From: Acidobacteriota bacterium
GTDB taxonomy: Bacteria > Acidobacteriota > Terriglobia > Terriglobales > SCQP01
Direction: 5' to 3'
Assembly: GCA_004299485.1 (NCBI GenBank)
Contig: SCQP01000018.1
Coordinates: 1 to 64,000 of the forward strand
DNA length: 64,000 nucleotides
The notes beneath the pieces are model-generated. The model saw nothing but the letters and a program-made list of their open reading frames with translations, made no database searches and was not told the DNA's origin. Positions within the stretch are counted from its first letter, which is position 1; each line of letters opens with the position of its first letter. Made by a program: the position numbers and the translations under genes. Below, in pieces: positions 37,373 to 40,030 of this stretch.

Positions 37373-37467
37373 AAGTGCTTGACTTTAGCTCCGGCATGTA
37401 CTTGGATGTGCTCAGGAAAGTCGAGAACAGCAGCGCATGCGGATCCTTTCTCGCCTGACGGTACGAG

Positions 37468-38061
37468 GTGGCAGGGGGGGGGCGGATTGCAGCGGCTGTT
37501 GCCATTGTTGCGTTGGCAGCACTCGACGCGTCACTTCTGGTAAAGAATCGCAGCCTCAACCGCGAAATCGTCTCGGGCGAATTCTCACAGCAGCCCCCGA
37601 TCGGCGACTTCATGCCGCCGTTGCGGGGCGTCAATCTGTCGGGCCGGTTTGAGACCGTGGCCTACAACGCTGGTCAGACGGCGACGTTCGTCTTCGTCTT
37701 TGCTGGAAGATGCGAGTTCTGCGGCCAGTCTTGGCCGTTGTGGCTGCGCCTGGTGAACGCGGCGGATCCACGCCGCTTCCGCTGCGTTTTTGTGAGCCTA
37801 GATAACGAGACGACTCCCACCCGCGTCGCTGCGCGGCTAAAATCCGACCACACCGTTATCACGCACCCGGACCCGCGCGACATCGCAGCGTTTAATTTTC
37901 GCTTGACCCCAGAGGTCATTGAGGTCTCGCCTACCGGCCGCCTGGTGGCCGGGCGCTCGGAATTGCTCACTTCTCCCCCGGCTCAGCAGCGAACGGGGCG
38001 CTATTGCTGGGCCCGCCTCGTGCGCCCCCACATCCCGGCTCTTTGCCGTAGTCCCACGTGA
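37468..38061 (+). CDS. Membrane-anchored thioredoxin-fold protein with CxxC motif
   Basis: From GTG 37468 there are 197 residues: one N-terminal hydrophobic anchor (AAAVAIVALAALDASLLVKN), then a TlpA/redoxin-like domain with the redox motif C82-E-F-C85 in AGRCEFCGQSWPLWL. Its C-terminal ~40 residues do not look like a normal thioredoxin-fold ending. A run of nine G (37474-37482) lies just after the start. Deleting one G would join the ORF to an upstream ATG at 37437 (MRILSRLTVRGG...), so a frameshift, sequencing error or slippage switch is possible. The gene ends 3 bases before the cysteine-rich peptide gene, suggesting a joint role in disulfide handling. Confidence 0.65.
   Translation: MAGGGRIAAAVAIVALAALDASLLVKNRSLNREIVSGEFSQQPPIGDFMPPLRGVNLSGRFETVAYNAGQTATFVFVFAGRCEFCGQSWPLWLRLVNAADPRRFRCVFVSLDNETTPTRVAARLKSDHTVITHPDPRDIAAFNFRLTPEVIEVSPTGRLVAGRSELLTSPPAQQRTGRYCWARLVRPHIPALCRSPT
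37474..37482 (+). repeat. Nine-G homopolymer at the 5' end of the thioredoxin-fold gene
   Basis: Nine consecutive G fall 7 bases into the reading frame of the thioredoxin-fold gene. Such tracts are prone to polymerase slippage and to sequencing error. An 8-G version would fuse the ORF with a start at ATG 37437. Confidence 0.8.
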
Positions 38062-38064
38062 GGT

Positions 38065-38295
38065 ATGAGTATGACTCTCAAAAAGGTGGTCTTCGTCAGG
38101 TTCGGTCGCGCGGTTGCGGTCGCCGCGCTCGCGGCTCTTGTTGGCTTCTCTGTCCTGCAGCTCCAGGCGTCGGCGGCGTCCCTATCGCCGCAGGTAGGCT
38201 GCGGCGGCACTTGCAGTTCGACACAGGCCTGCCAAGGCGAGTGCGGCTGCTATTTCTATCCCGATGGCACGGCACGCTGTATTGATGCACTGTGA
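38065..38295 (+). CDS. Secreted six-cysteine knottin-like peptide
   Basis: This 76-residue precursor has a basic N-terminus and a hydrophobic core (VAVAALAALVGFSVLQLQ) ending near ASA (residues 35-37), a likely signal peptide. The mature ~39 residues contain exactly six cysteines (46, 50, 56, 60, 62, 72) with spacing C-x3-C-x5-C-x3-C-x-C-x9-C. The CxC near the middle and six-Cys order resemble inhibitor cystine knot peptides, though no homolog can be named without a search. It sits 3 bases after a CxxC thioredoxin-fold gene and overlaps the VWFA gene by 11 bases, so all three are probably co-translated. Function unknown. Confidence 0.7.
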   Translation: MSMTLKKVVFVRFGRAVAVAALAALVGFSVLQLQASAASLSPQVGCGGTCSSTQACQGECGCYFYPDGTARCIDAL

Positions 38296-40030
38296 CCAGA
38301 GGAAGCGGCACCGGTGGCATCTGCTGCTGGTTCCGCTTTTAGTTGTGTGCGCCGCGCCGGTGATGGCACAGCGACCCGGGCGAGACGAGGTCCGGATCAG
38401 CACACGCGCTTACCGCCCGCCTCCGGCGATCATCCGCGCCAACGTAGCGTCGGTCGAGGTGGACGCGGTGGTGCGCGATGGGCACGGGGAGCCGGTGGCG
38501 GGCCTGCTCCGCGATAATTTCCGTGTTTACGATGAGGGCAGGCTGCAGAAGCTCACCGGGTTTATGGTCGCTGCATCTCCAGCAGGCGGCGCGGCAACGC
38601 CGACTACCGCAACTCTGGCGAAATCGACAGCGACTCCGCCGGCAGGCCCGGCGCAGCGGCCGCCGCGTTATCTGGCATTGTTTTTCGATGACGTGAACAG
38701 TGGCACGGGCGACCTCAGCCATGCACGCGATGCGGCCAAACTATTCCTGACGCGCGCCCTTCGCGGCAACGATCGCGTGGCGATCTTCACCGCATCTTCG
38801 TCGCACTCGGTCGGTTTTACACACGACCGCAGCCGCCTGCTCGCAGCCTTGGGGGCACTGAGCCCGCATCCACGGGCCGCGAGATCCAGCACCGGATGCG
38901 TGCATATGACGGCCTACCAGGCGTATTTGATCGTGAACCACCTCGACCCGGCCGCTCTTGCCGCAGCCGAGGCGAATACGAAAGCCTGTGCGCAAACCAG
39001 CGAGGGAGCAGCAATCTTTGGGGCCAATGGCCCGGCTGAGAGTGAAGGCGGCGCGATCGGGTCGATTTGGCTGCAGGCCCGTGCGGCATCGCAGGCAACG
39101 CTGGCTGCGATTCAGGACGTGGATGACTACCTCGCCCGGCAACCGGGACCGAGAGTGCTCGTCATCGCCTCCGGGGGCTTTCTCGGCCAAACGCTCGAAG
39201 CCCAGCAGGACCAGATCATTCAGGAGGCGCTGCGTCAGCGGGTCACCATCGACGGGCTCGATGCCAGCGGGCTGTACGCCAGCGGCCCCGGTCTAGCGCT
39301 GGATCAGCAGGCCGATGTGGGCGTGGCGCCGTTGGCGATGTTTGAGTTTGATGAAGAGTCGAAAATGCCCGAGCACGAAGCGATGGATGCGGCCATGGCG
39401 AACCTGGCGCAAAGCACCGGCGGCCTGCTGTTTCAGAACAACAACGACCTTGCGCTCGGCTTCGAGCGGCTGGGGCTGGTCGCGAGCGTGACCTACCGGC
39501 TCTCGTTCGCACCCGCCGGGCTCGTCCCCGACGGCAAGCTGCATCGCCTCCGGGTGAAGGTCGAGCCGGACCATGGCTATACGATCGAGGCGCGCCGCGG
39601 CTATTTTGACCCGCCGCCGGAAACGCCCGCAGTCAAGCTCCGTGAAGCCATCAACGCAGCCGCCCGCGGCCACGCCGAGGTACGGCAGTTCGGCGCGAGT
39701 TTGAAGGCGAGCCAAAACGGCAGCGGCGTGGCCGTCGCGATCCAGGTCGACCTGGCAGAACTCGATTTCCAGCGCGAGAAGGGCCGCGAACGCAATCGGC
39801 TGATTTTCACTGCCGAACTTTACGCCTCCGACGGGAAATTCGTGACGGGGAAACAGGCAGAAATGGATTTTGCCTTGCGGTCGAAGAGCTGGCAAATGCT
39901 GCGCCGCAAGGGCCTCGTTGTGCACCTCAGCCTGCCTACTGGGACCGGCCGCTATACCCTGTGCGTGGTCGTCGCTGCCGAGAACGGAGGCAGGCTCGAC
40001 GCGATGAGCCAGCCGGTCGTGATTCGTTGA
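38285..40030 (+). CDS. Secreted protein with acidobacterial VWFA-related domain
   Basis: From ATG 38285 the protein has 581 residues and a signal peptide (WHLLLVPLLVVCAAPVMAQ). A domain of about 270 residues matches the VWFA-related acidobacterial domain (TIGR03436 type). It has the VEVDAVVRDGHGEPVAGL entry (DNFRVYDEG), the RYLALFFDDVNS strand standing in for the MIDAS DxSxS region, and ARDAAKLFLTRALRGNDRVA. The second half (about 330-581) is beta-rich. Proteins of this type are abundant in Acidobacteriota and their role is not established; adhesion or envelope functions are likely. The start overlaps the knottin-like gene by 11 bases. Confidence 0.82.
   Translation: MHCDQRKRHRWHLLLVPLLVVCAAPVMAQRPGRDEVRISTRAYRPPPAIIRANVASVEVDAVVRDGHGEPVAGLLRDNFRVYDEGRLQKLTGFMVAASPAGGAATPTTATLAKSTATPPAGPAQRPPRYLALFFDDVNSGTGDLSHARDAAKLFLTRALRGNDRVAIFTASSSHSVGFTHDRSRLLAALGALSPHPRAARSSTGCVHMTAYQAYLIVNHLDPAALAAAEANTKACAQTSEGAAIFGANGPAESEGGAIGSIWLQARAASQATLAAIQDVDDYLARQPGPRVLVIASGGFLGQTLEAQQDQIIQEALRQRVTIDGLDASGLYASGPGLALDQQADVGVAPLAMFEFDEESKMPEHEAMDAAMANLAQSTGGLLFQNNNDLALGFERLGLVASVTYRLSFAPAGLVPDGKLHRLRVKVEPDHGYTIEARRGYFDPPPETPAVKLREAINAAARGHAEVRQFGASLKASQNGSGVAVAIQVDLAELDFQREKGRERNRLIFTAELYASDGKFVTGKQAEMDFALRSKSWQMLRRKGLVVHLSLPTGTGRYTLCVVVAAENGGRLDAMSQPVVIR

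What the first reader, a model, noticed from the sequence alone, without database searches (positions are those of the whole stretch)
37437..40030. Three-gene unit: CxxC thioredoxin-fold protein, knottin-like secreted peptide, VWFA protein
The three genes are separated by 3 bases and by an 11-base overlap, so they are co-translated. The peptide has a signal sequence and a six-cysteine pattern C-x3-C-x5-C-x3-C-x-C-x9-C like inhibitor cystine knots. A membrane-anchored redox protein upstream could fold its disulfides, and the secreted VWFA protein could bind or display it. I do not know of a described bacterial system with this composition.
Basis: partly seen in the sequence, partly recalled or inferred. 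Interest (0 to 1): 0.75.

Follow-up and report, generated by a model that had tools for sequence, protein, structure and literature searches.

The report
Bacterial knottin peptides with dedicated redoxin
A soil-type Acidobacteriota genome carries a small exported peptide that looks like the "knottins" of plant seeds and animal venoms, next to a membrane redox protein that probably ties its three disulfide bonds, and this pair recurs across the phylum, sometimes as arrays of up to seven varied peptides, without having been described.

Summary
The three genes are real, but the redoxin starts at GTG 37468, not at 37437, which is out of frame. The six-cysteine peptide is not a chance ORF. Redoxins of this type carry a same-strand exported small ORF with at least 6 Cys within 1 kb in 39 of 56 loci. 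The rate is 1/56 on the opposite strand, 4/118 elsewhere and 0/20 beside generic redoxins. Redoxins next to the window-type 6-Cys peptide form one clade (support 97/98) in which 15 of 16 loci have it; the 16th is cut by a contig end. Newly fetched clade members had it in 4 of 4 testable loci. Peptide pairs show dN/dS 0.15-0.66. A profile of the mature peptides finds ICK knottins in the PDB (Evasin-3, squash inhibitors), and a reversed profile does not. Two AlphaFold models match almost only knottins. Most likely: a periplasmic redoxin that oxidises or proofreads an exported bacterial knottin. VWFA is a third partner only within this family (2 of 3 genera tested); elsewhere the third gene is an ADOP permease, a ~480-aa exported protein of no known family, or a propeller. 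The peptide's target is unknown. I found no published description. New variant of a known kind.

The parts
37468..38061 (+). Membrane-anchored redoxin (thioredoxin fold, CEFC, cis-Pro), 197 aa from GTG
   Evidence: alignment A1: both Cys invariant; the family's closest NCBIfam models are ResA, MauD and StoA; relatives hit AhpC-TSA/Redoxin
37474..37482 (+). Run of nine G just inside the redoxin start; a site for frame slippage or assembly error
38065..38295 (+). Six-cysteine exported peptide precursor, 76 aa
   Evidence: conserved in redoxin relatives
38065..38175 (+). Predicted Sec signal sequence (AxA at residues 35-37)
   Evidence: Sequence inspection; hydrophobic stretch score 2.6
38176..38292 (+). 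Predicted mature knottin (residues 38-76; Cys 46, 50, 56, 60, 62, 72)
   Evidence: AlphaFold2 core pLDDT 81-85, beta hairpin; only ICK rows in VIA-align; PDB profile hits
38285..40030 (+). Exported VWFA-domain protein, TIGR03436, 581 aa
   Evidence: 186.5 bits, cut-off 81.25; groups with the VWFA of the same unit in G003/G015, SH-aLRT 94 with long branches

Best explanation
The locus makes an exported knottin (inhibitor-cystine-knot peptide) and its own folding factor. Steps: (1) the genes are co-transcribed and probably translationally coupled (inferred from 3-base spacing and an 11-base overlap). (2) The peptide leaves through Sec and its signal is cut near residue 37 (inferred). (3) The redoxin, held in the inner membrane by its N-terminal helix, uses its CxxC in the periplasm to form or correct the three disulfides 1-4, 2-5, 3-6 (inferred; the pairing of the two genes is shown by co-conservation). 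(4) The rigid peptide then acts outside the cytoplasm. Tandem copies with a fixed cysteine frame and varied loops suggest it binds and blocks something that varies, such as a rival's or predator's protein or a protease. In this family the VWFA protein is a partner that may hold the peptide at the cell surface.
For: Adjacency 39/56 against 1/56, 4/118 and 0/20 in controls. Redoxin clade with window-type peptides, support 97/98, 15 of 16 loci, 0 of 500 shuffles as clustered; 4 of 4 testable new loci fit. Purifying selection, dN/dS 0.15-0.66. ICK profile hits and reversed control. Fold matches. Arrays of 7, 4 and 3 peptides beside one redoxin. Redoxin family nearest ResA, MauD, StoA. By established knowledge MauD is needed for the disulfide-rich MauA, and SPbeta BdbB for sublancin.
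Against: No experiment. ResA-type redoxins usually reduce disulfides, so the direction is open. Some family members outside this clade have CxxS/T, and one in the clade (L074) has CVFS. Model confidence is moderate (pLDDT 74 and 71) and structural Z-scores are low (2-4.5), as expected for 40 residues. How the peptide crosses the outer membrane is unknown.
Confidence: 0.62

Rival explanations
1. The redoxin keeps the exported peptide's cysteines reduced, so that the peptide can bind a metal or cofactor or act as a redox sensor; the knottin look is only the spacing.
For: ResA/MauD/StoA-like redoxins commonly act as reductants (established knowledge; nearest models). Many other peptide types beside this redoxin family have 8-12 Cys.
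Against: In the window's clade the spacing and the predicted fold are specifically ICK, with a reversed control. There are no His-rich or CxxC-pair metal motifs in the mature peptides.
Confidence: 0.17
2. The peptide is a bacteriocin-like or defensin-like antimicrobial; the redoxin is its maturation enzyme and ADOP, VWFA or other neighbours give export or immunity.
For: Arrays with varied loops; patchy spread, 18 of 399 class genomes at E<=1e-20; an ADOP permease (MacB/FtsX-like) near 11 loci.
Against: Sec-type signal, not a double-glycine leader. ADOP has 30-55 copies per genome, so its adjacency is only partly informative. No immunity gene is constant across loci.
Confidence: 0.35
3. The peptide is an exported protease or hydrolase inhibitor that protects the cell surface.
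For: Nearest sequence and fold matches include squash trypsin inhibitors, carboxypeptidase inhibitors and wrightide.
Against: The knottin scaffold serves many functions; no inhibitory loop residue was tested.
Confidence: 0.25
4. Chance neighbours: an unrelated small Cys ORF between a redoxin and one of many TIGR03436 genes.
For: TIGR03436 is multi-copy: 9 in this genome.
Against: Controls 1/56, 4/118, 0/20 against 39/56; clade-wide conservation; purifying selection.
Confidence: 0.03

Closest known systems
Inhibitor cystine knot peptides (Evasin-3, squash trypsin inhibitors MCoTI-II/MCoCC-1, leginsulin, excelsatoxin A)
   Same: Six Cys in ICK spacing, beta hairpin after C4-x-C5, signal plus small mature peptide; profile and fold matches
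   Different: Bacterial, genetically tied to a dedicated redoxin, little sequence identity beyond the cysteine frame and a few glycines
Predicted bacterial ICKs KrICK (Ktedonobacter racemifer) and HoHP-ICKD (Haliangium ochraceum), PMC3694633
   Same: Bacterial ICK; KrICK is also signal peptide plus a single ICK domain
   Different: Single cases resembling scorpion ICK toxins; no redoxin partner and no family described there
Bacterial cis-defensins (xanthusin-1, acidobacteresin-1), PMC11561630
   Same: Small exported disulfide-rich peptides in bacteria, one of them from Acidobacteria
   Different: CS-alpha-beta fold with a helix; the models here have no helix
MauD/MauA of methylamine dehydrogenase; BdbB/SunA of sublancin (from knowledge)
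   Same: A dedicated thiol-disulfide oxidoreductase encoded beside a disulfide-containing exported product
   Different: No dehydrogenase, glycosyltransferase or C39 exporter genes here; the peptide is a knottin; redoxin scores (about 30-36 bits in relatives) are far below the MauD cut-off of 188.6

Membership tests
Inhibitor cystine knot (knottin) | Six Cys with spacing within C-x3-7-C-x3-8-C-x0-7-C-x1-4-C-x4-13-C | tested here: met
   3-5-3-1-9 in the window; the same frame, with small changes, in most relatives
Inhibitor cystine knot (knottin) | Small beta-sheet core with no helix, matching solved knottins | tested here: met
   By prediction only: models of 41 and 52 residues, pLDDT 74 and 71; 9/9 and 9/10 VIA-align rows are ICK, Z 2.0-4.5
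Inhibitor cystine knot (knottin) | Disulfides 1-4, 2-5, 3-6 with the third threading the ring | not testable with these tools
   Needs mass spectrometry or NMR
CS-alpha-beta (cis-) defensin | Helix carrying CxxxC bonded to a CxC strand | tested here: not met
   No helix in either model; only 9 residues between CxxxC and CxC
ResA/MauD/StoA redoxins | Thioredoxin fold with CxxC, cis-Pro and N-terminal membrane anchor | tested here: met
   By sequence:
ResA/MauD/StoA redoxins | Score above the curated cut-off of a named member | tested here: not met
   Relatives: ResA 43.7 (cut-off 170), MauD 36.3 (188.6), StoA 34.4 (210); the window protein hits only TraF-like/TrbB at E 0.04-0.05
TIGR03436 acidobact_VWFA | Score above 81.25 bits | tested here: met
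   186.5 bits
Double-glycine-leader bacteriocin | GG leader and C39-type ABC exporter | tested here: not met
   Sec-type signal with AxA; no C39 exporter seen among neighbours

The most novel reading that the evidence does not exclude
Acidobacteriota hold a phylum-wide class of exported disulfide-rich peptides (6-Cys knottins, CC-type 8-Cys, 10-13-Cys forms), each encoded beside a matched redoxin paralogue that folds it, with a swappable third gene. It would be a bacterial counterpart of plant and venom knottin repertoires, with a built-in folding enzyme.
Probability: 0.5. Interest if true: 0.82.

Novelty: new variant of a known kind. Interest (0 to 1): 0.7.

Why it matters
Knottins are almost entirely known from eukaryotes; in the literature held here bacterial ICKs appear only as two isolated predictions. 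A conserved bacterial knottin family with its own redoxin gives (a) a directly testable natural folding system for cystine knots, a practical bottleneck in peptide engineering, (b) a source of many natural scaffold variants, and (c) a lead to what abundant but poorly understood soil Acidobacteriota export.

Tried and rejected
Redoxin start at 37437: rejected, wrong frame. CS-alpha-beta defensin: rejected, no helix. A known Pfam family for the peptide: none; weak hits to AtDEF-like (best E 7e-4, 5 of 25 members) and CarbpepA_inh (0.017) only. Plasmid origin: no match in PLSDB. A search with the peptide alone gave mostly noise; the redoxin was the useful probe. VWFA as a universal partner: rejected outside the family. 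ADOP as an obligatory partner: not shown, 30-55 copies per genome. NVEALA analogy (Bacteroidota peptides with propellers) was recalled from memory; no paper was found and it was not tested. Paper searches for this module found no description; only open-licence PMC papers are held.

Full report
What is there. The redoxin ORF is 37468-38061 (GTG, 197 aa), the peptide 38065-38295 (76 aa) and the VWFA gene 38285-40030. A run of nine G (37474-37482) lies just inside the redoxin start; the ATG frame would join the redoxin frame only if one G were missing. The peptide has a Sec-like signal and C-x3-C-x5-C-x3-C-x-C-x9-C. It has no Pfam or NCBIfam match above noise. The third gene is TIGR03436, a family with 9 copies in this genome and 13-15 in relatives.

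Relatives. A search of 200 genomes of the order with the redoxin found 20. Reading the DNA around those hits showed small exported six-Cys ORFs beside almost all true relatives: one in G040, seven in tandem in G080, three in G168, four in an Acidobacteriaceae MAG (L101, one of them with five Cys). A profile of the redoxins found more members across the phylum, with peptides of 6 to 13 Cys beside them.

Is the association more than chance? Among 56 loci whose redoxin scored high, 39 have a same-strand exported ORF with at least six Cys within 1 kb. With identical criteria the opposite strand gives 1 of 56, other places in the same loci 4 of 118, and 20 generic redoxins from the same phylum 0. 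On a maximum-likelihood tree, the redoxins beside window-type six-Cys peptides form one group of 16 (support 97/98); 15 have the peptide and the 16th (L105) ends 145 bases after the redoxin gene. No label shuffle was as clustered. A profile of this clade was then used on 399 genomes of the class. The new high-scoring loci L174, L175, L176 and L186 all have the peptide downstream; L177 and L178 end at contig edges; L172 is the species of L106. These loci were not used to form the hypothesis. L188, a partial hit, has a five-Cys version. Further hits at lower scores (L179, L185 and others) belong to other redoxin groups, some without a peptide.

Is the peptide a gene? dN/dS between orthologous or closely paralogous peptides is 0.15-0.66, and 0.15 for the G003/G015 pair, whose redoxin and VWFA give 0.17 and 0.20. 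The window peptide itself has no close enough relative for this test; its case rests on the conserved frame and place.

Fold. A profile of 25 precursors against PDB sequences gave Evasin-3 (E 9e-5), leginsulin, carboxypeptidase inhibitors and MCoTI-II. With mature sequences only, Evasin-3 (0.0017), MCoCC-1, excelsatoxin A and MCoTI-II. The reversed sequences found no knottin, best E 0.034. AlphaFold2 on the window peptide with ten relatives gave core pLDDT 81-85 and a C-terminal hairpin; all nine VIA-align rows were ICK peptides, Z 2.2-3.1. A second model (L100 peptide) had three strands; Foldseek ranked Evasin-3 first (probability 0.98) and nine of ten VIA-align rows were ICK, Z up to 4.5. 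Each score is weak, as expected for 40 residues, but they agree. Disulfide connectivity is not shown.

The redoxin. CxxC and the cis-Pro position are conserved in the window's clade, except for one CxxS in L074. Nearest curated models for relatives are ResA, MauD and StoA, all far below cut-off. It is therefore a ResA-like membrane redoxin of an unnamed subfamily. Whether it oxidises, isomerises or reduces is inferred, not shown.

The third gene. In the window's family, G003 and G015 (another genus) have redoxin-peptide-VWFA in the same order, and the three VWFA proteins group together (SH-aLRT 94, long branches). G021 of the window's own genus has an ADOP permease there instead. Across loci the downstream gene falls into recurring families: ADOP TIGR03434 in 11 loci (in the window it lies 3.7 kb downstream), a 430-530 aa exported protein without Pfam or NCBIfam match in 8, VWFA in 4, and a propeller-like protein in 3. 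ADOP has 30-55 copies per genome, so its link is enriched but not proven. The core is the redoxin-peptide pair; the third gene is swappable.

Mechanism and limits. Committed view: redoxin-assisted folding of an exported knottin (0.62). What the knottin does is open; blocking of a competitor's, predator's or protease target fits the arrays with varied loops and the patchy spread. Antimicrobial and inhibitor roles overlap with the main view and are listed as rivals about function, so the confidences do not sum to one.

Known and new. Bacterial ICKs were predicted once from two sequences (PMC3694633), and bacterial cis-defensins are described (PMC11561630). I found no description of this redoxin-knottin module in the library held. 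I rate it a new variant of a known kind.

Noticed in passing
37474-37482: Nine-G run just inside the redoxin start, the only run of 9 or more identical bases in the window; one G fewer would give a longer, more basic N-terminus from ATG 37437. Assembly error or frame switching cannot be told apart.
   Followed up: partly
L052:7675-10132 (G080), L053/L100, L101: Tandem arrays of seven, three and four six-Cys peptides beside one redoxin, with a shared SARQL signal end and varied loops.
   Followed up: partly
L075, L076, L079, L087, L096, L127, L056, L060: A 430-530 aa exported protein without Pfam or NCBIfam match recurs directly downstream of the redoxin (or of the peptide), most often with an upstream 8-Cys 'CC' peptide: a possible new family.
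   Followed up: partly
L072/L102, L074, L081, L097, L122, L125, L128, L132, L050, L106: ADOP (TIGR03434) permeases beside redoxin-peptide pairs; several score below the family cut-off and may be a subfamily.
   Followed up: partly
L074, L125, L132: Redoxins of this family that have lost the second Cys (CVFS, CPYT, CPFS), as expected of an isomerase or trap.
   Followed up: no
L057:20-856 (G015): Redoxin and peptide are in one open frame of 278 aa without a stop between them, whereas in G003 they overlap in different frames: a natural fusion or a sequencing error.
   Followed up: no
L095, L098, L129: Ten- to twelve-Cys and other exported peptides with a redoxin and a beta-propeller-like protein nearby.
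   Followed up: no
40043-40677: RHH antitoxin and ParE toxin gene pair (parDE type) directly downstream of the unit.
   Followed up: no
40674-41015 (-): Small protein with a superinfection-immunity domain (PF14373) at its C-terminus.
   Followed up: no
L108 (Longimicrobiales): A fragment of a similar redoxin in Gemmatimonadota, broken across frames; no peptide seen.
   Followed up: partly
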